From a virus, in the IMG/VR virus record IMGVR_UViG_3300009164_000001, positions 1-64,000 of that record: 64,000 nt of DNA; one strand, given 5' to 3'. The position numbers and the translations under genes are program-made. Below are positions 9,740 to 55,293 of the stretch, in pieces. Within the stretch, counting starts at the first letter, position 1, and every line of letters begins with the position of its first letter. The notes under the pieces are model-generated. The model ran no database searches. It had not been told where the DNA came from and saw only the letters and a program-made list of their open reading frames with translations.

Positions 9740-12700
9740 TTATTTATTGCTTCCTGCTCCAAGATCAAACCACTTAGCTGCGGCCCCTGGATCAGAAGAC
9801 TTTTCAATTCCTCCCCATATTGGGATAAGCTTTGCAATTTTTGCTTGTAACTTGCTGTCCCCTTTTTCGTGTATTCCAGAACGACGTTGGTAGTAAGAAT
9901 CTTCATCGTTTCCAGTTACAGTTCCTACAGCTGTAGAGAATGTTTGGTGAACAACATCTAAGAATCTTTGTAGCGGTCGAACAGTTGCTGTAGGACTTAC
10001 TGCAAGCTTTAAGAATTCTTCTGGGTTTATGAACTGAGTTAATTCAGAATTCATACGAAGAGCTTGATACATCAAGAATTGTTCTCCGTAGCTTTCATCA
10101 TCGTCATCTCCACCTAAAGCTGATAAGATTAGCAAGCATAATGTAAAGAAGGCCATTTGAACACTAACACGTTTTACGTTTTCTTTCTCAAAGTCTTCCA
10201 TCATTTTGTACACACTTACAAAGTTTCCTCCTTTTCTATATGTATCTCCAATGAAACGTTTCATTGTAGTAAGCATACCTTCTGAAATAGTTCCAAGCTC
10301 TAAGTCACGGTGGATACCCCCACGAAGTCCGTTGTGTCCAAAGTTTCTACGAAGAGATGGTACAAAGTAACGACGGAATAGCATGATTAATTTACCAAAT
10401 GATCTACGTTGAAGCATAGCATCATCAAACTTAGTTTTAACCTGGTTAGTTTTCTTAGTTAATCCAGAAATCTTTCCCATGAACTGCATTCTATTAAACT
10501 CCCCAAGTACTTCTATTGTGATATCATTACCATCTTCATCAATCTCATTTACTTTTTTCATCACACGAACCTTAGGGTCCACAGAATATCGGCCAGTCTT
10601 TTCATCTAAGACAAATACATCCCAAAGATTTGCATCTTGGCCTTCTGCATTCTTAAGCACTTGTCCATTTTCATCAAGTAACTTTCCTCTGTATGAATCC
10701 ATTAAAGCAAACATACGAGTAACAGCTGTCTCATGTTCAGGGATCTTTTGAAGGATCATTGGAATATCGTTAACAGCTTTTAATGCAAATGGTCCTGACT
10801 TCTTTTTGTTAGCTATGTCTAAGGCCTCTCCAAGAGCATCAAATTGTTGAATGGCTTGTACAAGTTTAGACTGTGGGGCAAATGAATCAAAGTCTTTAAG
10901 TGACGATAATCCTCCATTAGCAATAGAGTAGTACGTTCTCTTAGCCCATGCTAAGTTTGATTTATTAAAGAATTGATTGGCCACTCCTTCTTCTACCATA
11001 CGAACGTTATCTATCAAGAACTGGTTAGTAGCTTGAAGAGCATTGAATGCAAGGTTGTTTAAAGCTGTAAAGCTTGCAAGTTTGTTAGCTATTTTGTTGG
11101 CTGAAAATTCCCGTCCAAAGATATCGAGATTGGTTTTGAGATCCTTCTCTCCATAGAAGATAGTGTCAATCCATTCATTTAAATGTTTAAAGTCATTGCT
11201 ATCCCCTTTTTTAACTACGTGTTTGGTAAATTTAAGTTTCTTACCAAATGCATGGTAGATAGGATGGCCGGCAGAAGTTGTTTCGTATGTTATACGATTT
11301 TCTATTGCATCTCTCATCAATACAACAGCTCCATTAATCTGTGCTTTTCTTTTGAAGATGTTAGTCATTCCAGAGAACTGGACGATCGTGCTAGCCAAGT
11401 CACGACTAACTAATTTTTCTTCAAGAGGATTTACGTAGTAAACAGGTATTACTTTTTTAGTAGACTCTCTGTTTGCATTGATTGCATCCCCATAGCTTGT
11501 ATCTGTAGATAAGAATTGAAATGCTTCTTTAGTAGCATCTTTAGTTGCTGACCATGCTCCTTCTCTTTGTACTTTTTCTAAACCTTCTGCACGAATACTT
11601 GGGGCAATGTAACTAAAGTTATCCCAAGAGTTTTTTGGTTGCTGACTAGCCTGTCCTAAGATTTTTTGTTTCTCTTTGTAAAGGTCAAGCAATCCATTGT
11701 AATAAGCAAATGCTGCAGGGTTTGATTGAAGTTGTGCATATTTAGGGTTTGCATACTTAGCATTAGGTTGCACAGCATTGTATTTAAATACGTTTCTGTT
11801 AGTGTCGTAGATTTTATTAATCATAGACTCTACAGTGTCAAAGTCATACTTATACTTAGCCATCAGCTCTGGATCCGGTGTCTTTGGGTTACCGTCAGCA
11901 TCAATTCCACTTGACTCTTGAAGCATAAGATTGTAGTATGCATCTTTGTCAAGAAGCAATTTATCAAGACGTGCTTGAGAGTCTGGACTTGGTGTTGTAT
12001 TAGCTGCATACCATGCTGCTACCTCTGTGTAATATGCTGCTTTAGCTGGAGATTTTTTCCAAGTTTTTAATGCATCCTCGTCTGATTTTTCTGGCTTAGC
12101 ATATTTTGCAGCAAGCATGTCGTACATATCAGACTCATCTTTCTTAAATCTTTTTACGTCGTAAGGCTGTACAAAAGATAGTAATCTCATTACCTCTCTT
12201 TTACCACTTTCAGGATTGTAAATTCTATATTCTTGTGTTTCTAATAATGCATCGTTAAATGTATTAGGATTTACACTTCCTCCTACAGATTCTTCGTAGG
12301 CCTTGTAAAGAGCTGCTACTCTGTAAATATCTGCTTGTGTATCATCATTGGCTTGATACATTTTGTCTTTTAACATTGTTGCAAACATTTGCAAACCAAC
12401 TTTAGATGAGTAGATGATTGGGTCCATCAAGTAACTAAATGCAGATTTATCTGCTTGCCCTTCTTTAAACTCTCTGATTAAAGTTGCACGAGTAATTTTC
12501 TTATTTTTAAGCTGCTCAATATTTAATGCTTTTAACATTTCATGAGTCTCTTCTTTAGTAATTGTACCTTCTTTTTGTTGATTAAGAATATTGTAGTATT
12601 CTTCAGTACGTTCAATAGCAACTAAACGATCATTCTTTTCAATGTTAGCAACAGCAGAATCAATCTGATCATTAATTTCAGGAGTATTGTATTCTAACAA

Positions 12701-14476
12701 CAAGTCCACCATCATAGGTATACCTGTCTCTAAGTACTTATCCGACATACCTTTCATTACATCGACAGCACTTACAATACTCTGTTCTAAAGATGAAAGT
12801 TCTTTGTATTTAGGATCGGTTAATAACTGTTCTTTAGTAAGACCTTTTCTTTCAATCTTATAACGTACAAGCTCACGGATGGCTCCCATCATACTATCTT
12901 TAGCCTCTTTGGCTCCAAAGAAATCAGATAAGTTTTGGCCTGCAGAATGCAGTTGGTGGATAAGTTTTAAACGTTGGTCTGTTGATAAACCAGTACTATA
13001 CTCTTGATTAACTTGTTCTATTAATGTTTTAGTGTTGTCTACAAGAGAAACTGCATACTCAATAAATTCTCCTAAATCCTCAAGCTCTTTTGCTAATTCT
13101 AATTTAGCTTGAATATTTTTTATTTTTTCAATTTCTTTTTCACTTGCATTCTCCCCTTGACGTTGAAGATTGATCATAGCTTCTTCTAAAGCTATTTTAG
13201 CTTGTGTCAATACTTCATCAAATCTTTTCTTTTTCTCATTGTCTAGAGCTTTACTGTCTGCTGCAAGAAATCCTACTGACATATTTTTAAACAGTCTGCT
13301 ATCAATCTTATCTTTCATAAGAATTTGAGCAAGCTCTTCAACTGCAGACGGTCTTGCTTCTACACCAAAAAGTTTAGATAATGCACGAAAGATTCTATTT
13401 ACAATTGTTTGGAATTTGTTAGGATTCTTTCGTTGAATTTTTGCTCCAGCTATACCAATAGCAGTAGTCAAAACTTCATTATCTAATTGCTTCCCATTTA
13501 ATTCTGGGTAAGCTAGTTGTACTTGTTTATACAGATTGGTGTTACGAAGTTCTGCTATTGCTCTATTAACAACAGGGTTGTCTTCTCCAAGTAAATCTAA
13601 TAAGATGTGCCCAAACTCGTGGATAGCTGTATCCTCTGTCACCCTTGAAGGGTTAAGACGAATTATAGGTTTTTTACCAGGTGTAGAATCTACTCTACCT
13701 TTCCCATCTAATTCAGGATCAATAATGATTTCAATAGGGATACCAGCTCTTTCAAAAGCAACTCTCATTCTGTTGATACCCTCAGATATTGTTTCAATCT
13801 CAACATTCTGCATTCCCTCAATATCAATTCTGCTATCTTTTGACTCTTGTTCAAATCTAGCCATGATACTCTGGACATTCTCACGAGTCATTTTTGATTC
13901 AGCAACAGCTGCATCAAGAAGGTTTGGATTAAACTGATGTTTAAATTGTGAGGTTACTTGAGATGGTACCGGAACTACTGCTCTAGGACTTGCAACTCTA
14001 GCTGGACGTGGATCACCTGTAAGTGGAATGATAGGGTTAATATATCCATTGCTTCTTATAGGCTGTTCTAAAGCATACTCATAAGAGATTTGCTCGTTTT
14101 CAAATACTGGGGCAAGATTTGGTTGAATAGCACTAAGAATGTTTTCATTAAATCTTACAGCTATTTCTACATTGTTATTACGGCCTTCACGTTGTACTGG
14201 GGTAAGAGATATCACTGGGGCCGGTGCTCCGTAGTTAAATTGAAGAATTGCATTTAATTGCATAATATCTTCAATAGGAGATAAATCAAATCCAGTTTTA
14301 AGAATAGGGTTGAATAATCCCATTACATCAGCATCTGCTAATTCTCGTAATAAGTCTATAGCAGTAACATAACCTACCGAAGCAAGTTTGTTATCAATCA
14401 TGTTGATTACTCTAGTGTGGACAGGAGATTGTCTGATCTGTCCGTTTTGGTCTATTCTTAAATATGTACAAGGCAT
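9740..14476 (-). CDS. Giant virion protein with N-terminal zincin metalloprotease motif (last late gene)
   Basis: This 1578-aa protein is probably packaged and ejected with the RNA polymerase, from its place in the crAss-type giant-ORF block. Residues 275-345 carry a gluzincin-like protease signature: AIHEFGHILLDLLGED (H286, E287, H290) and a likely third zinc ligand at E334 in NEVLTTAIG. The middle (about 400-760) is long helical and coiled-coil-like. The C-terminal 300 residues are basic and end near a short hydrophobic helix (MAFFTLCLLILSAL) that could enter a membrane. The ATG at 14476 lies 4 bases after a TATCTTTG element. It is the last gene of the leftward block; its stop is 8 bases from the shared terminator. 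Protease activity is a prediction; the virion location is inference. Confidence 0.75.
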   Translation of the reverse strand: MPCTYLRIDQNGQIRQSPVHTRVINMIDNKLASVGYVTAIDLLRELADADVMGLFNPILKTGFDLSPIEDIMQLNAILQFNYGAPAPVISLTPVQREGRNNNVEIAVRFNENILSAIQPNLAPVFENEQISYEYALEQPIRSNGYINPIIPLTGDPRPARVASPRAVVPVPSQVTSQFKHQFNPNLLDAAVAESKMTRENVQSIMARFEQESKDSRIDIEGMQNVEIETISEGINRMRVAFERAGIPIEIIIDPELDGKGRVDSTPGKKPIIRLNPSRVTEDTAIHEFGHILLDLLGEDNPVVNRAIAELRNTNLYKQVQLAYPELNGKQLDNEVLTTAIGIAGAKIQRKNPNKFQTIVNRIFRALSKLFGVEARPSAVEELAQILMKDKIDSRLFKNMSVGFLAADSKALDNEKKKRFDEVLTQAKIALEEAMINLQRQGENASEKEIEKIKNIQAKLELAKELEDLGEFIEYAVSLVDNTKTLIEQVNQEYSTGLSTDQRLKLIHQLHSAGQNLSDFFGAKEAKDSMMGAIRELVRYKIERKGLTKEQLLTDPKYKELSSLEQSIVSAVDVMKGMSDKYLETGIPMMVDLLLEYNTPEINDQIDSAVANIEKNDRLVAIERTEEYYNILNQQKEGTITKEETHEMLKALNIEQLKNKKITRATLIREFKEGQADKSAFSYLMDPIIYSSKVGLQMFATMLKDKMYQANDDTQADIYRVAALYKAYEESVGGSVNPNTFNDALLETQEYRIYNPESGKREVMRLLSFVQPYDVKRFKKDESDMYDMLAAKYAKPEKSDEDALKTWKKSPAKAAYYTEVAAWYAANTTPSPDSQARLDKLLLDKDAYYNLMLQESSGIDADGNPKTPDPELMAKYKYDFDTVESMINKIYDTNRNVFKYNAVQPNAKYANPKYAQLQSNPAAFAYYNGLLDLYKEKQKILGQASQQPKNSWDNFSYIAPSIRAEGLEKVQREGAWSATKDATKEAFQFLSTDTSYGDAINANRESTKKVIPVYYVNPLEEKLVSRDLASTIVQFSGMTNIFKRKAQINGAVVLMRDAIENRITYETTSAGHPIYHAFGKKLKFTKHVVKKGDSNDFKHLNEWIDTIFYGEKDLKTNLDIFGREFSANKIANKLASFTALNNLAFNALQATNQFLIDNVRMVEEGVANQFFNKSNLAWAKRTYYSIANGGLSSLKDFDSFAPQSKLVQAIQQFDALGEALDIANKKKSGPFALKAVNDIPMILQKIPEHETAVTRMFALMDSYRGKLLDENGQVLKNAEGQDANLWDVFVLDEKTGRYSVDPKVRVMKKVNEIDEDGNDITIEVLGEFNRMQFMGKISGLTKKTNQVKTKFDDAMLQRRSFGKLIMLFRRYFVPSLRRNFGHNGLRGGIHRDLELGTISEGMLTTMKRFIGDTYRKGGNFVSVYKMMEDFEKENVKRVSVQMAFFTLCLLILSALGGDDDDESYGEQFLMYQALRMNSELTQFINPEEFLKLAVSPTATVRPLQRFLDVVHQTFSTAVGTVTGNDEDSYYQRRSGIHEKGDSKLQAKIAKLIPIWGGIEKSSDPGAAAKWFDLGAGSNK

Positions 14477-14494: not shown

Positions 14495-17400
14495 TTATAT
14501 AAAGCACGACATAGTTCCATCTTCATTTCCTATGTTATTCACTCCTGCTTCCCATACAGCATTTCTTCCAGAAGTTATGTAACTAACTAAATTAGTAGGC
14601 ACATCATTTTTAAGTACGTATGAAATACCAGTACCGTATAACTTTGTAGCTCCTCTAGCTGCAAATGATCCTGCTAGAGCTGTGTACATAGATACTTCTC
14701 TGGAATCATTTGGAATTCTTTGATATACTGCAGAAGTTTTAGCATCTTGGTTACGAACTATAACAAATGGTTTATGTATCTCTTTGCTAGTAATTATTGT
14801 TGCCATATCTGGTTTAAGCTCATCACTAGGGACAGTTGATAACATCCCTTGGCCAGCAGCTCTCATTTTACCAAACATAGTCATATATCTAACTAGATCT
14901 TTTGCATCAAAGTAATTACCATCTGCAAGTTTTTCTCTTTCGTTGTACATGAATTCTGAGATTGTAACTTTCTTATCAGAACCTTCTACTTCCATTGGAG
15001 TAGTAAAGAATTCAGATGGAACAAGGTCAGAGTATGAATCAGCACTTTGTCTAAAACCATTAGTAATAAACGTATGCATAACCAAGTCTCTCCCTAAACG
15101 TTTGATTTGATTAACTTGAGATTGAATCTCTGGACTGTATTTTCCATCAGGTCCTAAAAACTTTTGCTCAAGAGGAGCAGACACATATGCAACAGGATTG
15201 TACAGCATTGTACGAAGATTGTTTGTGTAAGCTTCTTTTGCTGAACGTGTAGGAGTTACAGAGTTATCAAACTTAATACCGTAGTAACCAGCTTGTGCAT
15301 TAACATCTAACTCTAAGTTAGCAATGAATGGTGCACTAGCTAAAGCTGGGTGCTTTGCTCTAAGTTTTAACATTCTTTCTCCAATGTTGTTAGAAGGACT
15401 GTCGTACAAATCTCCATAAGTAGTATTTGCAAAAAATGGAGATCCAGGCCTCATCAACATCATAAACATTAAGTTGTAGTCAATCAACTGATGCATTTCT
15501 GCATTGACATCATTTCTACCACTAGCTCTCTTTAAGTTTTCTTTGAAGTTGTTGAAAGCATTTGAAGTACGGATTGGAAAGTACATACCTGCAAGTTCCA
15601 ATCCATCTCTTAATAACTTTTCATAACCTCTTTCAAATCCGTAAATAGAATTTTCTCCAATGTATTGATCTACCACGTTACGGCCGGGGCTCATGCTGTC
15701 AAAGAATAAAACTTCTTTGTTTACTTTTCCATCTTCTGTATCGTAGTCCTCATCAAACTCAGCTTGCTTATCCTGGTACCCTTGAATAGAACCAATACGA
15801 TTCATACCATCCATAGAATCTGGAGTAATACGTTTGTACATGTTCATCAAGCTTCTACCAGCTTTTGAAAAGAATTCAAAGTTGTGTAGGAAGATTGCTT
15901 GTTCAGCCATATCTCTTCCTTCGATAAAATTAAATCCTGCTTGTTGAGTAGCGGCTTTAGAACCAGCAATGTTTGCAAGTTCAGAAGCTTTCATTGGAAG
16001 AGATTGAGCTAAGTTTATACCTTCTCCTTTAGGGATAAGATTATTTAAGTTATACTTTGTCTTGATAAAATCAATAGACTTAGTTAATTTTCTTAAATCT
16101 CCTCCATGCTTTGTTTCAAACACATCTATTAACTCTCTAATGATAGGCTGGTTCAAGAAGTTGGTGCATGTTTTAGAACTATACTCAGGAAAGAAACCTA
16201 AGAATAATGCACGTACTCTAGAGGTAAGCATGTTGTCATTTAACTCCGTATGAATAGGAACGTTTGAAGCATCCACAGCAGCTGATAAGAACAAAGATGT
16301 TGATCTGTCTGTAGGGATACCTTGTGCTTCTTTTACGTAGTTAATGTATTCAGTTATGTTTCCTGAGTCATCAATTATTTTAATAGCATGGCTTTTATTT
16401 ATAGCAATGTTACCGTGAGAAGCTACGTTACGTCCAGACAGCATGTTTGCATAGATACCACGAAGTTTGTTACCCTTGATACTACGAACAATAGTGTTAG
16501 CTTCAGTATCCCAAGCATTCCAGTCAGTAGCCATTCCAAGTTCAGGCTTTACTTTTCTAACACGAGCTGCTTCATTAGGAAGGGTCTTGTCATCGAGTGG
16601 AGCAAATACCTCATTGAAGTGAGCAGGATTAGAGTAGACTGCTTCAACTGTATCAAAGATAATGTTGTTTAGCATCTCTGGTGTTACAAGCTTTTCATTA
16701 GATAAAGCTGCTACATTTTTTGCAAGTGTCTTATAGTTTGGAATTACTTTTCTAATGCTGTATGGGTAATCTGGGGTCGGCTCAACTTTCTCTACCTCTG
16801 GGAAAAGTAAAGTTAATTTATCGACGTCATGGTCAGATCCCATCAACTTGATAAGCTGTCCTGGTACAACGATTCCTTTTTGGTAGTTGGCTGGTAAGAA
16901 CTTAGCAATTTTTAAAATAATGGTTGCAGACTTATCGGCATTAGGGGTACGGTAACCTATGATTCTACGTAGTTCTTCTGGTACATCGTCCAAAGATTCA
17001 CCTGGTTCAATCCCAAACTGACGAGCAAGGTCTTCACGAATCATGATCTCAGCATGAATAACTCTCTTACCGTCTTCAGAAATTTGTGTGAAGTTTAATG
17101 CATTGTCTACTCTGTGCCCACCTATCTGTGCAATCTGTACTGCATCGTATCCTTTAGCCTTTTGGTTAAACACTTTGTTGTTAACCAAAGACATGATGAT
17201 AGACTCATACTTCTTATTGTAGATAGGTAAGTCTAATGGAATAGAGAACCTTGGCATTCCTGTCTCATCAAAACTAATCTTGATAGCATCAGAATAATTT
17301 GAAGGAAGATCACTCTCATCAATCTGCTTTAACAAAATATCTCTTACCTTTTGCAAAACTTCTAGTTTTACTTTTTTAAGGTTATCAATATCTCCTAGTG

Positions 17401-20400
17401 CAGTTGCTTCTCTAAGCTTGTCAATCCCTAATTCTTCTTCTACTGCATTTGTATCTCTTCTAAGTTTCTCTTCAATAGCAGCATGGTATAGCTTCTTCAT
17501 TGCAGATCCAGTCAAGCTAACTTGAGAACCTAGTCCTGCATTTAAATCATAGATAGTCCCATCTGCAACATTAGCAATCATGTTCTTTTTCAACTGACGG
17601 CTGATGATAACTTTTGGATCAGGTTTCATCTCCCCAATGTTCTGAGGGAAACGAAGTTTCTTAGAGTTATTTTTATTTATAACCATATTACTGAGTTCCC
17701 CAATATTCCCAGTATGTTGGTATACCCCACGTTTTGCTACCTTCTTACCTGATACGTGATTTAATACGTGCAAAGGCTGTAAACCTTGTCCTGCATATTG
17801 TCCGTCAAGTTCCATACGTGAACGTATGTCTTCAAGGTGTGGGAAATCTTTTGTGTATTCTTTCAACAATACAGTGTACGAATTCTTTTCAGAAGTTGTG
17901 CTCATCATATTGTTTTCTTTGTCGTAGTGTACATCCTCATAGTATGGTTTATGTGGTGTAACAGGGACAGCTTCTCCTTCTTTATAACCTTTAGGGAGGA
18001 ATCCTTTTTGGTATACAAACTTACCAGTTTTCTTATATGCTTTGTAAGCCTCTTCTTCTTCTGTGCCCCATTTACCTTCTCCCATAGAGATGTATCTATG
18101 CATGTCTAAGCTAATAAAAGCCTGAGCATCTGTAGATTCAAAAGCTCCTGGACGATAAGCATCAGCAATAGCTAATGACTTTTCAAAAACTCTTGTAGTT
18201 GCTGGTAAAAGTGCAGCTATTTCTGTATTAATTTTTGCAGAAGAAACTCTTCCTTTAGAATTAGCTGCATTAATTGTAATATTTTTTCCTGAGATTTTTA
18301 CAGCTGGTTCTGTTTCAGTAGCTGTTGCATTGTATTCAAATGTAACTCTGTACTTGTTAACAGTTGGGCCTAGCTTTGATAACTCATTGTTGATAAGTCC
18401 CCTAGCAATGTTATCACAAGCTGCATGTCCTTGGGCAGTAAGTGCAGGAGTCAAGTCAAGATGCAAATCTCTCATTGTAACTTCATTGAACTCTTTTATC
18501 ATTCCATAAAGCTCTCCTTTAATGAATGTTCTTGCATTTGACAACTCTCCTTGTAAAGCCAATCTTGTACCAGGTGTAGTTAAATGGCCCATACGTTTGT
18601 AGAAGTTCTCTAAGTTCTTGTGATTTGCTCTGCTTCCACGGAACATTTTCACAATTTCATTTCTCATTAAAGCTTCTGTAACAATGAATCCTCTCATTGT
18701 AGTTTCAAGGGCACCTTTTTCTTGAGAGAAGTTTATGGCTCCTACTCCAAGGCTGCCTATTTTTTTACTATCTTTTAAAGCAACTGTTGCAGCCTCTGCC
18801 TGCTTTGTAAAATATTCACTCATTTTAAGAGTCATTTTAGCAAGCCTAGCATCTATATCAATAGTCTCTGCAGGAGTTAGTTTTCCTGCTACATAATCAT
18901 TTATTTTATCACTCAGTTGTTGAACACCGTTGTAAGCAACACTGTCTTCTTTTATTACTTCATCAGTTACAATGGTTAATCCGTCTGCATCTTTTGCAGT
19001 AAACTGGAAATAATCTTCATTAAAGGCATTCCCTAAATATTTATTGTCTTTTAGAATTCCTTCTTTTGTCGGGTTACCTGGCTCAGTGTGCACACCTTCT
19101 AAAAGTGTACTATAGTTCTTAGTTGTAATTGCAGTGTGTACAACTTGCTTAGCAGCTGATACACGTAACAAGTCTTGTACAATCTGTGCTTTTATTAAGT
19201 CAGCCTCAGAGTTATCGATACCATAAGGGTTTACTAAGACTCTTGGTACCTCAATGAAAGAATATTTGTTACGGTCAGATTGAACTGGTACAGCAATAAA
19301 GCAGGTCTCAGATCTTGGGTCATTGTTGATAAAGGCATTGATCCTTACAACTAAGTTATCAAGTTTTGAGAAGTCCTCGTAAGACATTGCATCATCAACT
19401 TTGTCCCCACTTTTAGCAGCATCAAAGTCAACTACTTTAAAATCTTTTAAGAATCCTGGAGTTTTTAAGTATCTAAATAATACACTTGCAAACTTAGGAT
19501 TGTTACCTCCATTAATGAATGGATCTGACATGTATTCTTTATACAGTTCAACACTCTCAGCACTTCCATCACTAAGGGTGTTAACAATATCATTCATGTT
19601 AGATGCAAGATTAGATGGGTACATAGCTTTACCCTTACTGTTCACAAAGCTTTCTCCAATTGTATTTAGCATTGGAGTAAAGTAATTAACAATACCTGTA
19701 ACTAATGCTTTATTTAAACTGATGTAGTCTGCTGTTGGAGTGATTGTCTCAAGCTGTTCTACAGTACTTTGTCTAGAAGGTGTGAATTTTGCAGACAGTT
19801 TTAATACTTTAGTTAAATCTGCTGCAAGTAATTTAAGTAATCCAGTTCCATTATAGTTTCTAACTAATCCATTAGGGGATTTAATTCCTACACCAACGTT
19901 TATTAAAGACTGTAATGCCCATTTAGTTTCAGCTATATTTGAAGAGTCAGTTCCGATGTGCATCCCTAAGGCCCACATTAATTCTGCTACTTTTTCTACA
20001 GTCTCATTGATAGATCCATCAGATGTTTGAACAACAAATGTTCTTGGATCAGATTTATTTAACCCTTTTTCTAAGTCTCTAACAATAGCAGCTGCTGCTA
20101 ATATTTTTTCTCTATCAGCTTCTAAGTATGTTACTGGACTTCCATCAGAGTTTATAGTTGGTTTACCTGCAGCATCAAGCACCGGTTTTCTTTGGTACAA
20201 GGCTCTAGGGTTCTCATTGTTATCTCTGATAAGTTGGGTTTTCCAACGGTCAATTGTCCCAGCTACTACGTCCTTTCTATTAGGATTGATTACGTCTGCA
20301 AATCTTTTATTGCCTTCAATACGATCTTTGATCATAATGAATTCAGTATTTACAAGAGCAAAAGCAGTGTAAAGCATTGCACAGTCACGGTCATCTAATT

Positions 20401-21988
20401 TTGACATGAAATCTGCTATAGGCTGTAGCACTGGTTTTAATTCTGCAGCTTTTTTTATTGCTGCATGCATAGATTCAAAAGTTTGTTTACCAGTAAATAC
20501 ACGTAGCATTTCTTGGTACACATCTTCTCTATTCATATAAGAACGTACCCCTAAAAGATTTGGTTCTATATTTCTGATAGTACTCAGCAATTCCTTAACC
20601 TTTCCCGTTAATCTTTTTGACGGAGATTCTTGTAAGGTAGTCATACTGTATATTTTCATAGTACCCTCATCAACTAACTTCATCTCTTCTTGAAGAGCAT
20701 CTAAATCTGCTGGGTCTAATTCATTGTTAGCATCTATATCAAAGCTGTCATCTTTATCTTCCTCTATATTTCCTTCAGCAGTAACTGTATTGTTAATCTT
20801 TATACCGGCCTCACGAAGTTTAATCTCTAAGAATGTTCTCCAACCTGTTTGTATTGAGTTTCCTGTAGCAGGATCGTACACATCATTCCACGTGGATGCT
20901 ACATTTTTGAATACATTTCGAAGAGTGATGTTCTCTTCCATCGTAAACTCTGCACCCACTTCTTCAAGTGCATTCCACATAGCAGCTTCTGCATCGTCAA
21001 GTGACTCTGGAGTAGCAGCATCCATTGCTGTCTCAGCTGCAAATAACTTGTTAGCTTCTGCAGCAGTGATAACACTCCCATCAGTTTTCTTGTACATCTG
21101 CATTTGAAACTGATCTACGATAGCACCGTTCTTTCCATCAACACCTAATTGCACTTGTGCACTAAATCTTCTTCCTAGATCTTTTTTAGTATCCATAAAG
21201 ATTGTGTAGATAGTATCTAACGATGCTTTAAACATTGCATCCCCCATTTCTGGACGGTACATGTAAGCTTTCTTTGGACCTTTAAATTTCTCTGGGTTTC
21301 TGAATACCCCTCTACCAAGAATAGAAGAATTCATTTTACCACTCTCAATTAAAGAGTATGCTTGACGAAGGCTAAGGTTGTTTGTAACTAATGCTTTGAA
21401 GAAGTTCCATAGATCTCTAAAGAACTTTCCAATTTTAGCAGGTAAACTTTTTTCAGTGTATCCTTCAGTTAGCACATAGTCTTTAAAGTCATCAGCCATT
21501 TTCTCTTCCAAAGCAGCTTTACGTGCTTCTTCATCAGAGATTTCTGGGAATGTTCTTTTGATGTATCGAATCTCTCCTGCAGTCGGTTCTCCAAATCTTG
21601 TAGCAGCTTCTGCATACAATTGCTCTCTTTGACTTTCAGACAACATAGTTCTGAATGACAAGTGATAAGCTTCGTGAAATTCTGTCCCAATATCAGAGTT
21701 AGTCCACATATGAACTACTGCATTCTCTACATAACCATGCACTTCTTCTGACCCAATTTTTTCAACAGTATCAAAAAGATTTGCTTCTATCCCTCTTGAA
21801 GTAAGCCAAGCTTTTTTTTGGTCTGGACTTAACAAAGTATCTATTGCAGAACCTTTAAGTTTATTTCCATAATAAAATCCTGGAACTGTACCACGAAACT
21901 TATCCCATAATTTATGAGCAATAGCATCACCTTGAACAGCTGCAAGATCCTTGTATTCTTTTGAATTAATATTGGGGCAAAAAGCCAT
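14495..21988 (-). CDS. crAss-type virion RNA polymerase with N-terminal zincin-like domain
   Basis: This 2497-aa protein is the best candidate for the virion-packaged RNA polymerase that crAss-like phages inject to transcribe early genes. The key motif is LMGSDHDVDKL near residue 1718: a D-x-D-x-D loop like the metal-binding DFDGD loop of the phi14:2 virion polymerase and other two-barrel polymerases. It follows the strand VVPGQLIKL, as expected in a double-psi beta-barrel. Near the N-terminus, EFHEAYHLSFR (H105, E106, H109) plus EEKMADDF (E161/E162) form a gluzincin-like signature. The remaining length has no motif I can name. It starts 10 bases after the 2272-aa gene and ends 18 bases before the 1578-aa gene, so the three form one unit. 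Polymerase identity rests on one motif, size and order. Confidence 0.82.
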   Translation of the reverse strand: MAFCPNINSKEYKDLAAVQGDAIAHKLWDKFRGTVPGFYYGNKLKGSAIDTLLSPDQKKAWLTSRGIEANLFDTVEKIGSEEVHGYVENAVVHMWTNSDIGTEFHEAYHLSFRTMLSESQREQLYAEAATRFGEPTAGEIRYIKRTFPEISDEEARKAALEEKMADDFKDYVLTEGYTEKSLPAKIGKFFRDLWNFFKALVTNNLSLRQAYSLIESGKMNSSILGRGVFRNPEKFKGPKKAYMYRPEMGDAMFKASLDTIYTIFMDTKKDLGRRFSAQVQLGVDGKNGAIVDQFQMQMYKKTDGSVITAAEANKLFAAETAMDAATPESLDDAEAAMWNALEEVGAEFTMEENITLRNVFKNVASTWNDVYDPATGNSIQTGWRTFLEIKLREAGIKINNTVTAEGNIEEDKDDSFDIDANNELDPADLDALQEEMKLVDEGTMKIYSMTTLQESPSKRLTGKVKELLSTIRNIEPNLLGVRSYMNREDVYQEMLRVFTGKQTFESMHAAIKKAAELKPVLQPIADFMSKLDDRDCAMLYTAFALVNTEFIMIKDRIEGNKRFADVINPNRKDVVAGTIDRWKTQLIRDNNENPRALYQRKPVLDAAGKPTINSDGSPVTYLEADREKILAAAAIVRDLEKGLNKSDPRTFVVQTSDGSINETVEKVAELMWALGMHIGTDSSNIAETKWALQSLINVGVGIKSPNGLVRNYNGTGLLKLLAADLTKVLKLSAKFTPSRQSTVEQLETITPTADYISLNKALVTGIVNYFTPMLNTIGESFVNSKGKAMYPSNLASNMNDIVNTLSDGSAESVELYKEYMSDPFINGGNNPKFASVLFRYLKTPGFLKDFKVVDFDAAKSGDKVDDAMSYEDFSKLDNLVVRINAFINNDPRSETCFIAVPVQSDRNKYSFIEVPRVLVNPYGIDNSEADLIKAQIVQDLLRVSAAKQVVHTAITTKNYSTLLEGVHTEPGNPTKEGILKDNKYLGNAFNEDYFQFTAKDADGLTIVTDEVIKEDSVAYNGVQQLSDKINDYVAGKLTPAETIDIDARLAKMTLKMSEYFTKQAEAATVALKDSKKIGSLGVGAINFSQEKGALETTMRGFIVTEALMRNEIVKMFRGSRANHKNLENFYKRMGHLTTPGTRLALQGELSNARTFIKGELYGMIKEFNEVTMRDLHLDLTPALTAQGHAACDNIARGLINNELSKLGPTVNKYRVTFEYNATATETEPAVKISGKNITINAANSKGRVSSAKINTEIAALLPATTRVFEKSLAIADAYRPGAFESTDAQAFISLDMHRYISMGEGKWGTEEEEAYKAYKKTGKFVYQKGFLPKGYKEGEAVPVTPHKPYYEDVHYDKENNMMSTTSEKNSYTVLLKEYTKDFPHLEDIRSRMELDGQYAGQGLQPLHVLNHVSGKKVAKRGVYQHTGNIGELSNMVINKNNSKKLRFPQNIGEMKPDPKVIISRQLKKNMIANVADGTIYDLNAGLGSQVSLTGSAMKKLYHAAIEEKLRRDTNAVEEELGIDKLREATALGDIDNLKKVKLEVLQKVRDILLKQIDESDLPSNYSDAIKISFDETGMPRFSIPLDLPIYNKKYESIIMSLVNNKVFNQKAKGYDAVQIAQIGGHRVDNALNFTQISEDGKRVIHAEIMIREDLARQFGIEPGESLDDVPEELRRIIGYRTPNADKSATIILKIAKFLPANYQKGIVVPGQLIKLMGSDHDVDKLTLLFPEVEKVEPTPDYPYSIRKVIPNYKTLAKNVAALSNEKLVTPEMLNNIIFDTVEAVYSNPAHFNEVFAPLDDKTLPNEAARVRKVKPELGMATDWNAWDTEANTIVRSIKGNKLRGIYANMLSGRNVASHGNIAINKSHAIKIIDDSGNITEYINYVKEAQGIPTDRSTSLFLSAAVDASNVPIHTELNDNMLTSRVRALFLGFFPEYSSKTCTNFLNQPIIRELIDVFETKHGGDLRKLTKSIDFIKTKYNLNNLIPKGEGINLAQSLPMKASELANIAGSKAATQQAGFNFIEGRDMAEQAIFLHNFEFFSKAGRSLMNMYKRITPDSMDGMNRIGSIQGYQDKQAEFDEDYDTEDGKVNKEVLFFDSMSPGRNVVDQYIGENSIYGFERGYEKLLRDGLELAGMYFPIRTSNAFNNFKENLKRASGRNDVNAEMHQLIDYNLMFMMLMRPGSPFFANTTYGDLYDSPSNNIGERMLKLRAKHPALASAPFIANLELDVNAQAGYYGIKFDNSVTPTRSAKEAYTNNLRTMLYNPVAYVSAPLEQKFLGPDGKYSPEIQSQVNQIKRLGRDLVMHTFITNGFRQSADSYSDLVPSEFFTTPMEVEGSDKKVTISEFMYNEREKLADGNYFDAKDLVRYMTMFGKMRAAGQGMLSTVPSDELKPDMATIITSKEIHKPFVIVRNQDAKTSAVYQRIPNDSREVSMYTALAGSFAARGATKLYGTGISYVLKNDVPTNLVSYITSGRNAVWEAGVNNIGNEDGTMSCFI

Positions 21989-21998
21989 AGTTGATTAT

Positions 21999-24900
21999 TT
22001 ATTTTGGGTTACAAATTTCTTGTATGTTCTCTCCAGAGGTATCTAAATTAGATATCATGCTCTCTAAGGATTGATTTCCCATTGCAGCTAGCATGTCATC
22101 TGGTAAAGCACTCATATCTACTGCCCCACCTCCCATTGAAACTACTTTCATTCCTCCAGTTGTAGTTTGTGAAGTTACAACATTTTTCTTACTTCCAAAG
22201 AATGCAGAGTTTGTTTTTGGAGCCACAAGCCCATCAGTGCTTGCTACTACTGGTGTAGCTGCAGGTGGCCCAGGTACAGTTGGTGTAACAGGAGCTGCAG
22301 GTGTAGTTGGAGCAGGTGCTGATGGAGTTGACGGAGCTGCAGGACCTTGAGGGCCTGAACCTTTAATCATTCCTTCAACTCTTGGTGCATACGATACAGG
22401 AATTCCAGGTCTATTAAATAAAGATGTAATATTTCCATCTGCATCATAATTTATTTCAAAAGGCATAATGCCTAATTTTTTAACACTAAGTCCAAGCATC
22501 TTATTAAATAAATAAGCATACCCAGAGACTTGAAGCTGATGTTTTTCTTTTTTGCTAAGTTGCCCTGGAGCAAAAGATCGAGAATAGCTTTCCCAACTTT
22601 TTAACTTGCTAGTTTTAACATCGTAGATCATGTAGTTACCATCTTTGTCGACAGCTAAGATGTCAATCTCTCCTGCTACTTTAGAAACTTTATCATAGAC
22701 TACAAGATTTCTAGTTATATATCTTCCACCTACAGCATCTAATTCTTTCTTGATTTTGTTAAGCTTTGTCATAAGCATATTAAATGCTCCTTCAGAGATC
22801 CCCTCAGGTCTTGTAGTATCACCTTCATCAAAGAATCTTTTAACAATTTCGTCCACAGTGTTTCCAGCAACTCTGCTATTTTCGTATAAAGCAGGGTCTC
22901 CAGTAAAATCATCAGGAAGAACATTAGTCATACGTTTGTATAACTCTCCATCAATGATGTAGAATTGCTCGTCTGCTGTTTTACCTTCTACAAGCTTTTG
23001 AGATTCTGCTAGTAAAGTCTCAATGTCAACTGCATTACTAGGGGCTGCTGGAACTACTGGAGTTGCGGCCGGAGTAGAAGAAGTTTTAGGGAGTGCAGTA
23101 GTTACTACAGAGTTTGCAGCAACGTCAGCAGCTTTTTCAGCTGTAGCTCCTTTAACACCTACTGGGCCAAACTTCATATTAACATCATGGAATACAGATC
23201 CGTTTGCATTTGGAACTGTATCTACTGCTAAGATTGAATTGTGTCCCACTCCTTCTGTTCTAGCTTCTCCTGCAAATTGAGCAGAGTCAGAAAGGTACTG
23301 CATGTAAGGATGAGTCTTTCCGTCTTCGTAAGGATAAACAGTTCCATCAATTGGGCTAGTGAATGGCTCGTTAACTCCAAATTTAAATTTATCTACTTGA
23401 TATTTTTTAGACATCGTAGCCTCTTTAAATTCATCACCAACGTTGTTTTCTACAACTCCATAATCTGCAGGTTCTTTTTTAACAGCTGTGAATTTGATAA
23501 ATCCTTGGTCGTTGACTTCAGATTCTATGAAACTAAATTTAGGCCTGCTTCCATTTAAAGCTGCCTTCATTTCACTAGCATTTATTTTTATAAGGCTATT
23601 TGCAGATTTAGAATAGAATATAAATATTGTTTGCCCATCTTCTAACTGGTATGTAGATATAAATTTAGTTAAACTATCAGGACGTTTAAGTTCTTCTGCA
23701 AGAGACTTATCTGTTATAGCTACTTCATCAGACTCTGATTTAGCTTCTACCTCAAGTAAGTTACAACCTACAATCTGGCCGTACTTATATGCCTCAGGAA
23801 TTTCTTTGGTGATGTGGTTAAGTGCAGCTGTTGCTCCTCTTGTATCCATATCTTTTGTACTGGCCATAACCATTACAGGAGTACCATCTGGAGACTCAAC
23901 TAATACAGCAATTTGTCCTGGAGTAACTCCGGTTGATTCTGGGTCGGCCGGATCACGAGGGAATGGACGAGACCCAGTTGCAATAACTTCTGCATTACCT
24001 TCTTCAGAATCATGCATTACTTTCCAAACTAAATCACCATTCTCACTACCTACATAGAATAATGTTGGAGTAGGCTGCTTTGTGATCTTAGTCACAGGGT
24101 AGAAGAACACTTTTCCAGAAGAAGTTCTAGCATTACTTATCTCAGAAGTATCATTGAACTTTTCCATTACACTTACTGTAGGAGTAAACCCATCTAAGAA
24201 GTGCTGTACAATTTCACGACGTTTGTTTCCTTTAAATCCTTCTGGACTATCTTCTTTATATGCAGCCAATAATTGAAGACGTGTACCATCAGGAAGAGCT
24301 GCATAGATTGGAACGTTTTTCCAACCAACAGTCATCATCCACTCTTTAAACTTTTCTGGGTCAGTAGCTGTATCACTTACTTCTGCTTCATTAGGAATCT
24401 GGCTTTTAAACCAGTCAGTATCTATTGCTACAATTAAATCTAACGTAGTTCCAACTGGGACCATTTCTGAACTAGTCAAATGTTCTGGGAACATTAGCAC
24501 AGTAGAACCTTCAATTGTTTGCCCCATTTGACCACGTAGAGCTGGGTCATAGCCTGGCATATCTTTTTTAGGGGCTTCAGTTCTAGTCTGGCCATTAAGG
24601 TCTACTAAAACTTTTCCATTCTTTTTAACAACGGTTCCTTTTGCTAATTGAATATCATTAGCTTCTCCAGACACAACTGCTTTTGGGGCACCTGGATCCT
24701 CAGTAGGGGCTTCAAATACAGGATCACCTGCACCCATTCTTAGGACATCTTCAGCAAGTAAAGCTTCTTCTTTAGCTTTTCTTATAGCTTCGGCTTCTTC
24801 ATTGGTGATGGAGCCATCCATCCCTTCCGACGTAAGTCCTGCTGCAGGGTCGATATCCGCTGCTTGAGGCTCTTGCCCTTCAGGAGTAGAGCTAGGTCCT

Positions 24901-27900
24901 GCGGTACTGTCACCGTTTTGATTACGTTTCTCAAGTTCTCTTTGCTCATTGACTTCGTTTATTATGTTTTGTTGTCTTGTTATCTGTCCTTTCTTAGCAG
25001 AAATTTTTCTATCAGTAGCTAATTTAGAGTTTTTTGCAGCATCTACATCTTGTTCTCCATAAACACCGTCAATAATTTTTTGGTACTCATTGGATAAGTC
25101 TTCAAGCCTAGCTTTTTCTTTAGTTAATTCTTGAATTTTTGCATCAGCTGTAGCAATAATAGTGTTATATTCTATTTCTGTAGGAGATAATTCAATTTCC
25201 TCTTTAGCATCTAATCCTGCTTTTTCAGCAGCTTTCATTTTGCCTAGAACTTTGATCTTCTTTTTAAGAAGGTCATTCATTCTTTTTCTAAGTTCTAATA
25301 ACTGTGCAACTTGTGCATCAGCTTTAAACTCTTTCATGCTAAAGCCGGCCTCAAGTGCAACAGCTCTTTCCATTGCAAGAACCTCATCAAGTTCTTGAAG
25401 ATCTTGTTTGATTAACTCTACTTGATATCGAAGTTCATCCATGCTCAGACCTGCCGTCTTTGACATGTCTTTCATTTCTTTTTGCAGAGTATCTTCTTTA
25501 GCTAAGATTTCTTCAGTATCAGTGATTAAGTTTTCAGCTATTACAGCAATGTTTTCTTTAGACTCTTCTAAGGTAGTAGTATCAGTCTCTGATATTGGAC
25601 GAATCTTAGAAGCTTGCAATAAAAGATTGTATGCAAGTAATGTAGCAATTGCTGTTTCTCTTTCTATAGCAGCATTAGTTGCATCGGCCTGAGCTTCAGC
25701 TGCAATTTGAGCAGCCTCTCCAGGTTTCATTACTACTCCAGTTGACAGCTGAGTCTCTTGATAATCCTGTGGATTAACGTTAGCTACAGGGACAGTTGCT
25801 TCTTGTATTTTCCAAGTAACTTCATTTCCAGTTTGCCAGTCAGTAAGTTTTACTCCTACTACTTCTCCAGCATCATCTAGAATTAAAGCTTCTACTGGGT
25901 CAGCACTCTCCATGTAGTATTGCCTTCCATCAATATTAAATTGAGTTCCGTTTGGAGAAACCATTATCTCATCCAACAGAGTTTGCTCCATTTCAGACAG
26001 ATTGACAAGTCCTGCACTTTCCCCTCCAACAGTTTTAAATTCTTTTTCAGATTTAAGTTGATCGGGAGTAAGTCCTTTTTTTCTAGCTTCTTCAGTTTTA
26101 GCCTCCATTGCTTTCATCAATGCCGATTGAGACATTGCATCTAAGCTTTCCATGTCAATAGTTTTTAGATCTTCTAAATCCATTGTCATGTACTGAGCAA
26201 TCTTAGCTTTTTCTTCAGTTTCAAGTTGAGCACGTCTCTCTAAAGCAGCAGCTTTAACTTCTGGAGAAGCATCTGGATCCACAGCATCTGTAAGATCGTC
26301 TGCAGTTTCTGCTCCTGCAATTGCTTGTTTAGCTCTATCTTCTGCAGCTCTCTTCTGTTCTTGTTCCTGCAAAGCCATTTGAGCTTCTACGTACAAATCC
26401 ATTTGTTCTGGATTACGAGACAAGTTTTTAAATGCCTCTGAAAGACCTGCACGTTTGATTGACAGGTCACGAAGGTGAAGTAATTCAGCTTTAAACTCAT
26501 CAGCAGTTGCTACATCTAGTTCTGATTTAGCAGCATAGATTTCGTTAAGTTGTTTACCAAGATCCTCTTTAGGTTTAGCAGAAGCTGTTGTTTTAAATGA
26601 TGGATTACCATTTGAATCAAGTTCTACTCCCCCAACTTTGATCTGGAACTTCACTTCATCTGGATCTAGTTTTGCTAGAGCTGGAGCAAGCTGTACAAGT
26701 CTATCATATTGCTCGTCAATTCTACTATCAATAGTATCAATGTCAAGAAGATTGTGAGTTAAGATTTGTCCGTAAGTTCTACGTACAGCATCTTGAATCA
26801 GTTTGTTCTTTTTAGTTTCTTCTGTTTGAAGCCCTTCTTTAATCTTAGCCACTAGTGATGTACCAGGGTTAAACTGTGAAAGGATGTTGTGCACCTGCTC
26901 TGAACGTTTGATAGCAGATTGCATTTTAGTTTTTGTGTCCTCAATGATTTGCATCTGAGTTTTACCAGTCTGCTGCTCAAGAGTACGATTCATGTCATAA
27001 CCAAAAGCTTGCTTGAATTCTTTTTCCTCCATTGCAGCAGCATCATCAAACTGCTCCATTGCATAATCGATTGCCCCTAACCCATTCATCTTAGCAAAGA
27101 CTCCATGGATTAATCTCATACGAGCTGTTTCAGCTTTTAAATCGTTTTGACGTCTTTCAGCTTTTGTAATTCCTTCTCTTTCATTGTCAAGATTAGCATC
27201 ATTAATGTCTTTGATAAATGCTAAGTTCTCAGCACTTTGCTCTGCATTCTCGATAATTTTCTTAATAGCCCCTGAGTTAAGCATTTTTATAGCTTCAGTA
27301 GTATTAAGTCCTTTTTGAGCAAGAAGTTTTTTCTCAGCTCCCATAAGACGACTTACTGCTCCGGTACCACCTCCGACTAATGCTCCAATCAATATGTTCT
27401 CTAAACCTTCTTTAGTCCCTATAGTCGATGACAATGCTTTGCTCATTGCAGAAGCCATGTCTCCTGTACCATCGTTAAATTTTTCTCCGTAGTAGTTACG
27501 TGCATATTGAGACCCAGCAAACTGGCTGGCCTCTTGGAAACCTTCTTCAGCAGAAGTTTTAAGTACAGGCCCAAATGTTTTTTGTGCTCTACCATAAGCT
27601 TTTCCAAACTTAGAGCTTGCAGCTTTTTCAACCCATTCTTCCCCTGCAGTTAACCCTTTCTTCTCAATGTCGTACATTGTTTTTTCCCCAACACGGGCAC
27701 CCTGCATTGCTTTACCAAACATCAATAAGTTTGTAGCAGTTAAAAGAGGAAGGTTAATAGCAAACGTAGTATTACCTACAGCATTAGCACTTTGCAAAAT
27801 ACCGTCTTCTACATCTTTTGGCATAACCTGACCGGGGTTTTGCTCTTCCCACTCTGCTTTACGTTCTTCAATAAATGAGTTTTTAGCTTCACGAGCTTCA

Positions 27901-34100: not shown

Positions 34101-34222
34101 AGGTAATATGAAGCCTGTGGAGCTTGTGAAACTCCACTTAGGTTATATCCAGCTAAAGAGTACTTCTTAACTTTCTTTAGTGCAGGTTTTTGTTGTTGTC
34201 TACTAATTAGTTTTTTGGCCAT
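31157..34222 (-). CDS. Virion protein with Ala/Gly-rich hydrophobic region and repeated GG motifs
   Basis: This 1021-aa protein begins with a basic segment, then a coiled coil (about 55-90), then a long Ala/Gly-rich stretch (about 100-265) with hydrophobic glycine-zipper-like pieces (SVAGPYGTLAGAVAGLGYG) that could insert into membranes. Several GG motifs follow: GGMKRYAMGGS, GGSYNDLGGTRYAEGGK and GGMQEYAGGGK. Between them is a segment NTHEEGGIKLDKYTEVEDKE, which I remember from unnamed proteins of other Bacteroidota phages. A poly-Gly run (SSGGGGGGL) is also present. The gene lies between the Stab and cargo genes. A packaged, membrane-active ejection protein is the best guess. The GG motifs are shared with four other late proteins here. 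Confidence 0.65.
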   Translation of the reverse strand: MAKKLISRQQQKPALKKVKKYSLAGYNLSGVSQAPQASYYLGQSAADEAGKNQNVALQSLKETQDELKKLNEDQKKQQQDVVKQSGMELGKLALSTGKDIFAERAAKQAAAAATKTVASTAAKEFGTNAAMAGEAGVDLASTGASVGSTAVNAANTAGSFMAGVSSYGQPVAAALNIGGEIIKNTGSDNNAATFTKKERNHYGVGNIMASVGKGASYGSVAGPYGTLAGAVAGLGYGIYDTIKDNKASTEEAGKLAMADTDQMSAVNNSFINSKMMDSYRGGNQMARNGGMKRYAMGGSECPPGTTYNPATGACDPVAQATPQFNYFTTPAVAPEEDKASGEMYNSFDEQSARRNARKEYQQKKQQYNMDWAKARRVDIDSADPHTLQDRIPYPQMPLSPAEQRRVDAGKEPGTFFDHYQSDPKRPGTRMLNDWNNNLMEGDQDLGFRQERPVEEEQSSGGGGGGLRGLFTKKGKANYGGDHSKRQTGADFFQRQLNKHCQQVNSHADGGMMDPNCYEFGGSYNDLGGTRYAEGGKIKPIPNSNDVEYLGNTHEEGGIKLDKYTEVEDKETGTKINGNQYFFSRVLKTPKGEPYSQAHKAIASNPSLDPISKKNIIKDLARQQEEQAGRDPKQIARTGGMQEYAGGGKKKDPKKKSSYKDFKDYTGMENYDLPTGPTNEPSTGFMLNGQLVEYRMDAQTGDYIRDPKTNQPIPFPVSTKTDLKVQDGLKQELLDYNFRPQDNGEPGNLPKDPERKLDLSKTWLEEHPGFLGGLAQLAGPAYAMLKPYKKTAGMAAAQSVTAPSLARVDKSGEIEDARRQQNAMNTYLKNTNLGPGKIIAMQSVATKTADEIAKISQRQDQENRAIKNSEAQIAAEVAGRNQAAQLEASKSNMMADINQNQYMDERNLGVAEALGKGLAGMSMDQRKLDMQYRIARGLDKTGSLNRYEIMEQLRKQAKNPESPVYQKSEGELQQIASDLGYKVVQVLADDKEEKRFGGMGRKYTSRLGDLSTKRNTTAKQSI

Positions 34223-52665: not shown

Positions 52666-52717
52666 AAAGTATAAATTTATCTTTTATACTTTTACTTATT
52701 GTATAGCACTTGCTATA
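52666..52717 (-). promoter_or_regulatory. Two dyads upstream of the scaffold-capsid unit
   Basis: TATAGCA (52702-52708) and TGCTATA (52711-52717) form a near-perfect palindrome that covers the stop codon of the upstream gene. AAAGTATAAA (52666-52675) and TTTATACTTT (52683-52692) form a second 10-pair dyad with 7 bases between. No T-run terminator follows. They may be operators or weak processing stems just upstream of the TAnnTTTG element. Confidence 0.4.
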
Positions 52718-55292: not shown

Positions 55293-55293
55293 G

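What the first reader, a model, noticed from the sequence alone, without database searches (positions are those of the whole stretch)
13605..13635. Second zincin motif in the 1578-aa giant protein
HEFGHILLDL (286-290) with E334 in NEVLTTAIG is a better gluzincin match than that in the polymerase, with typical third-ligand spacing. Two proteases in adjacent giant ORFs raise the chance of virion protein maturation, possibly at the GG motifs.
Basis: partly seen in the sequence, partly recalled or inferred. Interest (0 to 1): 0.5.

Follow-up and report, generated by a model that had tools for sequence, protein, structure and literature searches.

The report
Second protease-like domain in phage cargo
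A giant protein of an uncultured crAss-like phage, related to proteins that such phages carry inside the virus particle with their RNA polymerase, contains an intact-looking zinc-protease domain; domains of this kind are already known in similar phage proteins, so this is a new member of a known kind rather than something unheard of.

Summary
P0002 (9740-14476, minus, 1578 aa) has HEFGH at 286-290 and E334; H286, E287, H290 and E334 are identical in 14 of 14 distinct sequences. A modest model shows the zincin core. The phage is Crassvirales-like. P0002 is related to crAss001 gp49 and phi14:2 g065, virion proteins accompanying the RNA polymerase. The adjacent polymerase has its own zincin, about as well conserved. 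Nine Crassvirales whose giant proteins I saw in full each carry at least one. The gp49-type zincin is homologous to that of coliphage N4 virion RNA polymerase. Against a universal role, crAss001-type gp49 keeps the domain without its first His and other relatives lack it. A public record already names a crAss 'RNAP associated protein fused to zincin protease': a new member of a known kind. Maturation at GG motifs is not supported. Most likely a protease ejected with the polymerase that trims the giant chains or cuts host proteins; zinc, activity and target are untested.

The parts
9740..14476 (-). P0002, 1578 aa, relative of crAss001 gp49 / phi14:2 g065 (virion RNA-polymerase-associated protein) with zincin domain
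13217..13924 (-). zincin domain of P0002 (residues 185-420 as aligned and modelled; core about 240-400)
13607..13621 (-). HEFGH, residues 286-290: two predicted zinc ligands and general base E287
13475..13477 (-). E334, predicted third zinc ligand, invariant 14 of 14
9767..11770 (-). residues 903-1570, region shared with gp49-type proteins of named Crassvirales (tblastn best E 2e-22)
14495..21988 (-). P0003, 2497 aa, virion RNA polymerase (DxDxD protein) with its own N-terminal zincin
21662..21676 (-). HEAYH, residues 105-109 of P0003 (zincin 1)
21503..21508 (-). E161/E162 of P0003, candidate third ligand, both invariant 10 of 10
16820..16834 (-). DHDVD, residues 1719-1723 of P0003: polymerase catalytic DxDxD motif
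21999..28817 (-). P0004, 2272 aa, relative of crAss001 gp47 (phmmer E 2e-42); no HExxH here

Best explanation
P0002 is a giant virion cargo protein of a crAss-like phage. Residues about 240-400 form a zincin-like metallopeptidase domain: H286, H290 and E334 hold one zinc, E287 activates water. It precedes a region of about 1150 residues, the later part of which is shared with gp49-type proteins, and it belongs to the zincin group found beside virion RNA polymerases and in podovirus ejection proteins. Shown here: motif, conservation, predicted core fold, homology to the phi14:2 g065 zincin group and, through that group, to the N4 virion RNA polymerase zincin. Inferred: that it binds zinc and is active; that P0002 is packaged and ejected with the polymerase; that after ejection it cuts protein, either trimming the giant polymerase chains into working parts or attacking host proteins. 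Trimming is my first choice for the target, by a small margin.
For: Ligand residues invariant in 14 of 14 sequences. Purifying selection: dN/dS 0.08 for the domain between window and L002 (whole protein 0.07, so not special to the domain). Model: helix, three strands, HExxH helix 100-112, Glu helix 144-161, the core described for polyvalent-protein zincins. Overlay on known metallopeptidases (lethal factor catalytic domain over model residues 38-188, Z 4.2-4.5; PPEP-1 and -3; others). Profile-profile with the named crAss gp49-type zincins 93.5%, P 2.4e-7; those with the N4 zincin 97.7%, P 2.3e-12, reversed control 4.3%; direct tblastn of the phi14:2 zincin to virion RNA polymerase of Acinetobacter phage Presley, E 8e-6. 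gp49-type proteins are in virions (phi14:2 record; crAss001 mass spectrometry). Recurrent position: zincin 1 is at the C-terminus of gp47 (3 phages), or ahead of the polymerase motif in the polymerase chain (4 named phages, window and 4 relatives); in L063 one 3781-aa chain has a zincin on each side of the polymerase motif.
Against: No zinc or activity was tested. Whole-model pLDDT is 65 and the block with HEFGH only 68; Foldseek found no significant PDB match and Hsp90-type chains top the VIA list. For P0002 no Pfam or NCBIfam family reaches its cut-off. Window clade against the N4 zincin directly gives only 43%. HExxH is missing from 13 of 17 named gp49-type chains and from L060-L062. In four of those 13 (crAss001, cr85_1, cr128_1, bajarodcaudo) the domain persists with EEFAH in place of HExxH (profile match 92.5%, P 4.9e-7, reversed control 0.3%), so in that branch it cannot work as a standard zincin. 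Against trimming: zincin 2 is absent from the fused cr11_1 chain and present where the genes are split, and N4 vRNAP is packaged unprocessed and was purified full-length (PMC12633501, passages).
Confidence: 0.5

Rival explanations
1. Assembly-time maturation protease: the two zincins cut cargo or structural proteins inside the assembling virion.
For: Phage P1 DdrB, with a zincin of the same broad group, is processed before packaging (PMC5512222, peptidase section read); zincins sit beside the polymerase region of giant chains.
Against: N4 virion RNA polymerase, the closest well-studied case, is packaged unprocessed; GG sites unsupported; zincin 2 comes, goes or decays between related phages.
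Confidence: 0.15
2. Co-ejected effector protease that cleaves host proteins (for example defence or transcription proteins) early in infection; the cargo itself is not its substrate.
For: Patchy presence, loss and decay; polyvalent-protein zincins are proposed to act as effectors among other roles; fold-level similarity to effector-type zincins.
Against: Recurrent position next to the polymerase region and low dN/dS are not what a fast-changing effector would show.
Confidence: 0.2
3. Structural zinc-bound or non-catalytic domain used for packing or threading the cargo.
For: The part of N4 vRNAP that includes this domain is needed for encapsidation (PMC5512222; PMC8472413 passage); zincin-type segments occur in solved ejection proteins; crAss001-type gp49 keeps the domain after losing the first His, which suggests that the fold is useful without catalysis.
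Against: In the window clade the general base E287 and all three ligands are invariant.
Confidence: 0.15

Closest known systems
Zincin-like metallopeptidase domain of coliphage N4 virion RNA polymerase (Schitoviridae; HELVH at 2228)
   Same: HExxH plus downstream Glu, located beside a virion RNA polymerase and before a large C-terminal domain; crAss gp49-type zincins are detectably homologous to it
   Different: N4 polymerase is single-subunit T7-like and fused to the zincin in one chain; here the polymerase is the DxDxD type and a separate gene; the regions after the zincin are not detectably related (hhalign 0.2%)
crAssphage 'putative RNAP associated protein fused to zincin protease' (label on cr11_1 gp65, referred there to crAssphage NC_024711)
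   Same: zincin in a giant protein of the transcription block of Crassvirales
   Different: that one is near the C-terminus of a protein encoded directly upstream of the polymerase gene; the window's is in the gp49-type protein downstream of it
phi14:2 g065 and gp49-type zincins of cr4_1, cr55_1, cr114_1
   Same: same protein slot, HExxH and downstream Glu helix, profile match 93.5%
   Different: window clade and L063 have HE[FA][GAS]H and E-[VTI] instead of E-F at the third ligand; tblastn with the window domain does not find them
Solved phage proteins: PhiM1 tetrameric ejection protein gp48 (8vb2) and gp10 (23sg)
   Same: profile of crAss gp49 zincins hits them at E 3.4e-5 and 6.6e-6 over the HExxH region
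   Different: hit by the named-phage profile, not by the window-clade profile; the words protease and peptidase do not occur in the PhiM1 paper (PMC11440229)
Lethal-factor-type, PPEP, SprT and minizincin peptidases
   Same: fold-level overlay of the model
   Different: low Z (about 3 to 4.5); no sequence relationship shown for the window domain

Membership tests
zincin-like metallopeptidase of polyvalent proteins (features as given in PMC5512222) | HEXXH motif in the first C-terminal helix | tested here: met
   HEFGH at model residues 102-106 within helix 100-112
zincin-like metallopeptidase of polyvalent proteins (features as given in PMC5512222) | conserved Glu in the second helix as third ligand | tested here: met
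   E334 (model 150, helix 144-161) invariant 14 of 14
[quoted passage not shown]
   H46-60, E65-68, E76-79, E87-90, H100-112, H144-161 (further helices lie between the last two) in a model of mean pLDDT 65
zincin-like metallopeptidase of polyvalent proteins (features as given in PMC5512222) | zinc binding and proteolysis | not testable with these tools
   needs purified protein
N4-type virion RNA polymerase zincin | profile similarity to the N4-like zincin alignment | tested here: inconclusive
   window clade directly 43%, P 2.4e-4 against 0.1 for the reversed control; through the crAss gp49 zincins 93.5% and 97.7%
gp49-type RNAP-associated protein of Crassvirales | homology of the C-terminal region and position directly after the polymerase gene | tested here: met
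   tblastn to 72 records, best E 2e-22 over residues 903-1570; gene order P0003 then P0002 as gp50 then gp49 and g066 then g065
thermolysin-type gluzincins (recalled NExxSD third-ligand motif) | N before and SD after the ligand Glu | tested here: not met
   the residue before E334 varies (N, F, K) and no SD follows in the window
lethal-factor-type peptidases (Pfam ATLF) | family profile above cut-off | tested here: not met
   no ATLF row among the 19 families listed for the 14 window-clade members; the cr55_1 zincin reaches 23.1 bits against a cut-off of 27.4

The most novel reading that the evidence does not exclude
The same zincin module was recruited beside two unrelated virion RNA polymerases (N4-type and crAss-type) and into ejection proteins because it performs a delivery step: after the giant chains are threaded through the tail it cuts them and frees or activates a self-inhibited polymerase. 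The window phage and L063 would carry one such protease on each side of the polymerase.
Probability: 0.13. Interest if true: 0.75.

Novelty: new member of a known kind. Interest (0 to 1): 0.42.

Why it matters
How giant polymerase proteins pass a narrow tail and become active in the host is an open question for crAss-like and N4-like phages. A conserved, apparently competent protease next to the polymerase in both groups gives a concrete, mutable candidate for a processing or effector step. In the main texts of four crAss papers that I word-searched, including the crAss001 virion structure paper, the words protease and peptidase do not occur.

Tried and rejected
E380 as third ligand: rejected, Q in L016 and K in L018. 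GG cleavage sites: rejected. Chance motif: rejected by conservation. A single common zincin family for P0002 and P0003: not shown, profile-profile 0.5%; they may still share the zincin fold. The P0003-side zincin against N4 gave 53% but over 38 columns only, around the Glu helix (reversed control 2.2%), and against the crAss gp49 zincins 14.7%, below its own reversed control of 35%; no relation is claimed. Shared region after the zincin with N4: not found, 0.2%, equal to its reversed control. That the first 1,600-2,000 residues of the long polymerase chains of cr4_1, cr55_1, cr114_1 and cr50_1 are gp47: I assumed this in a note, but a gp47 profile matches these chains only around the zincin, so it is not claimed. 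P0003 zincin model: pLDDT 52, not searched. PDB sequence search with P0002 and P0003: no match at E 1 or better; with alignment A3: two unrelated rows, best E 0.12. In the A6 search of the PDB the rows after the two phage proteins are staphylococcal enterotoxin (E 0.015), taken as chance, and lethal factor (E 0.081). Foldseek on the PDB: no hit at E 0.001 or better; in the VIA list the top 5 rows are Hsp90-type chains, taken as a common helical arrangement. BFVD: 3 hits at E 0.001 or better; the best has no name in the tables at hand. GTDB genome scan: one short match, in a Poribacteria MAG, not followed. One search was printed only in part by my script and is superseded. A link between zincin 2 and gene fusion was looked for and not found: fused with it in L063, fused without it in cr11_1, split both with and without it.

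Full report
What is there. The window is part of an 83,556-base IMG/VR virus record. Its large terminase is 39-42% identical to those of the 12 best of 164 matching phage records, nearly all labelled crAss-like, and portal, major head protein and terminase match PHROG families, so it is a crAss-like phage. On the minus strand three giant ORFs follow one another in the direction of transcription: P0004 (2272 aa, related to crAss001 gp47, phmmer E 2e-42), P0003 (2497 aa, the DxDxD polymerase protein) and P0002 (1578 aa). The C-terminal half of P0002 matches 72 phage records, best E 2e-22 over residues 903-1570. In crAss001 gp49 was found in virions by mass spectrometry (PMC10172136, passages), and the phi14:2 record labels g065 'RNA polymerase accociated protein' with proteomics evidence. 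That P0002 itself is packaged is inferred from these relatives.

The motif. HEFGH is at 286-290 and E334 in NEVLTTAIG, as stated. A random HExxH occurs in 1.1% of shuffles of this protein, and two or more in 85 of 2000 shuffles of 38 window ORFs. Among the window and 13 distinct relatives, down to 31% identity in the domain, H286, E287, H290 and E334 are identical in 14 of 14. Only 3 of 16 His of the whole protein and 2 of 11 Glu in 251-420 are invariant; the two Glu are the general base and the proposed third ligand. E380, an alternative, is not invariant. Relatives beyond the first six loci were found with patterns covering or adjoining the motif. A scan with the C-terminal region alone gave 11 loci; 8 have the motif, while L060, L061 and L062 (near-identical) have none in a shorter ORF of 1279-1280 aa. 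dN/dS between window and L002 is 0.08 for the domain and 0.07 for the whole protein: constrained, but not more than the rest.

Fold. AlphaFold2 on residues 185-420 with 14 sequences gave mean pLDDT 65 (68 in the ten-residue block with HEFGH, 82 in that with E334) and the order helix 46-60, strands 65-68, 76-79 and 87-90, helix 100-112 with HEFGH, two more helices, and helix 144-161 with E334. This is the zincin core that Iyer and colleagues describe for polyvalent proteins (PMC5512222, peptidase section read). Foldseek against the PDB gave nothing significant. The VIA second look put Hsp90-type chains first; among the following rows are many metallopeptidases: lethal factor catalytic domain aligned over model residues 38-188 (for example 4xm8, Z 4.4, 5.3 A, 129 residues; 1j7n, Z 4.2, 5.3 A, 130 residues), PPEP-3 and PPEP-1 (Z 4.1 and 3.8), a DNA-protein-crosslink protease, two archaeal minizincin zymogens, PprI (Z 2.7). 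These Z values are low; I use them only as agreement with the sequence argument. Ligand distances were not measured.

Relatives. Of 17 named gp49-type chains, 4 carry HExxH: phi14:2 g065, cr4_1, cr55_1, cr114_1. An alignment of these four plus an upstream zincin of cr116_1 (A6) matches the window-clade profile at 93.5%, P 2.4e-7, with HExxH and E334 in register. A6 matches the zincin of N4-like virion RNA polymerases (N4 and five others) at 97.7%, P 2.3e-12; the reversed control gives 4.3%. The phi14:2 zincin also finds the virion RNA polymerases of Acinetobacter phage Presley (E 8e-6) and Erwinia phage MIF8 (E 5e-3) by tblastn. The window clade against N4 directly reaches only 43%. A6 also hits two solved phage proteins, PhiM1 gp48 and a gp10. 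The N4 zincin itself is known in print (PMC5512222; PMC8472413 passages; PMC12633501 passages).

A decayed copy. In gp49 of crAss001, cr85_1, cr128_1 and bajarodcaudo (four related chains of the 13 without HExxH) the window-clade profile matches a region where HEFGH reads EEFAH: 92.5%, P 4.9e-7, reversed control 0.3% (weak hits already). The first zinc ligand is gone while the fold seems kept, so in that branch the domain cannot be a standard zincin. Those phages have another, intact HExxH domain in gp47. This speaks for a role of the fold beyond catalysis, or for relief of one zincin by the other.

The second zincin. P0003 has HEAYH at 105-109; H105, E106, H109, E161 and E162 are invariant in 10 of 10 sequences. 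With profiles for both zincin types I mapped giant proteins of named phages and loci. The polymerase-side type lies at the C-terminus of gp47 in crAss001, cr85_1 and cr128_1 (there gp47 is encoded on the other strand from the polymerase); ahead of the polymerase motif, after about 1,665-2,000 residues, in 4272-4774-aa chains of cr4_1, cr55_1, cr114_1 and cr50_1; and ahead of the motif in the polymerase chain of the window, L063, L060, L018 and L016 (ORFs of L060 and L018 reach the locus edge). A gp47 profile covers P0004 up to position 2048 and then P0003 residues 82-220 from position 2151: crAss001 gp47 corresponds to P0004 plus the zincin that starts P0003, so the domain sits on either side of a moving gene boundary. 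The N-terminal parts of the 4272-4774-aa chains did not match gp47. cr11_1 and bajarodcaudo have an A6-type zincin near the C-terminus of the protein upstream of the polymerase and of gp47, respectively. In L063 one 3781-aa chain runs zincin 1, polymerase motif, zincin 2, gp49-like region. Nine phages whose giant proteins were all in view (crAss001, cr128_1, cr116_1, cr4_1, cr55_1, cr114_1, cr11_1, cr50_1, window) each have at least one HExxH that a zincin profile supports; for cr116_1 (in a further giant protein) and the window the match is by construction of the profile, and the nine were chosen, not drawn at random. Others (cr85_1, bajarodcaudo, phi14:2, cr126_1, cr111_1, IMG/VR loci) are outside that count because a module was cut off or not in view; cr126_1 and cr111_1 showed none in the two proteins seen.

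Meaning. The recurrent place beside the polymerase fits a protease that acts on the cargo chains. Against this, zincin 2 is kept where polymerase and gp49 are separate genes, is absent from the fused cr11_1 chain and is decayed in crAss001; N4 vRNAP is packaged unprocessed and was purified full-length. Action after ejection, on the chains or on host proteins, therefore seems more likely to me than assembly-time maturation, but nothing here measures it. I recall, without a call, that phi14:2 polymerase was crystallised in a self-inhibited state; that paper and the 2018 crAss genome paper were not held.

Known or new. A public record labels cr11_1 gp65 'putative RNAP associated protein fused to zincin protease [crAssphage_NC_024711]', so a zincin in crAss cargo is not new. 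Paper searches pairing crAss with zincin, metallopeptidase, metalloprotease or polyvalent listed no title on this subject (searches list only the top rows; for 'zincin protease' found 0 papers). Of the three papers with crassphage and metallopeptidase, the passages of two are unrelated and the third was not opened. Four crAss papers word-searched (PMC7886860, PMC10172136, PMC10136315, PMC11054128) have no protease or peptidase. The library holds only part of the literature. What may be new is the second zincin in the gp49 slot, its decay in crAss001 and its homology to the N4 domain.

Noticed in passing
window 16820-16834 (P0003 residues 1719-1723): The polymerase motif reads DHDVD in the window and in L002, while the other polymerase chains in which my pattern found it read DFDVD or DFDID (the pattern allowed only F, Y or H there).
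   Followed up: no
L038 (crAss001 gp49 residue 234), L039, L040, L043: gp49 of crAss001, cr85_1, bajarodcaudo and cr128_1 keeps a zincin-like region with EEFAH instead of HExxH.
   Followed up: partly
L063:653-11995: One 3781-aa ORF joins polymerase and gp49-like protein, with both zincins present.
   Followed up: partly
window 31157-34222, 40503-41384, 52713-55334: Proteins rich in GG, often as KYxxGG or YAxGG (20, 10 and 12 GG; reached by 2, 3 and 1 of 500 shuffles); meaning unknown.
   Followed up: partly
window 22467-22763 (P0004 residues 2019-2117): Match to a phage exonuclease family (phrog_298, E 2e-9) near the end of P0004, in a region also shared with crAss001 gp47.
   Followed up: no
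MT732474.1 44071-44442 (Tenacibaculum phage Gundel_1): A structural protein matches the window zincin (29%, E 8e-5); its two records were the only ones of the phage collection found by tblastn with this domain.
   Followed up: no
L038, L039, L043 (crAss001, cr85_1, cr128_1), C-terminus of gp47: A HEAFH zincin domain matching the window's polymerase zincin profile; the word protease does not occur in the crAss001 virion paper.
   Followed up: partly
PDB 8vb2 chain A 368-489 and 23sg chain S 376-468: Solved phage proteins with a zincin-like HExxH segment; 'protease' and 'peptidase' do not occur in the PhiM1 paper.
   Followed up: partly
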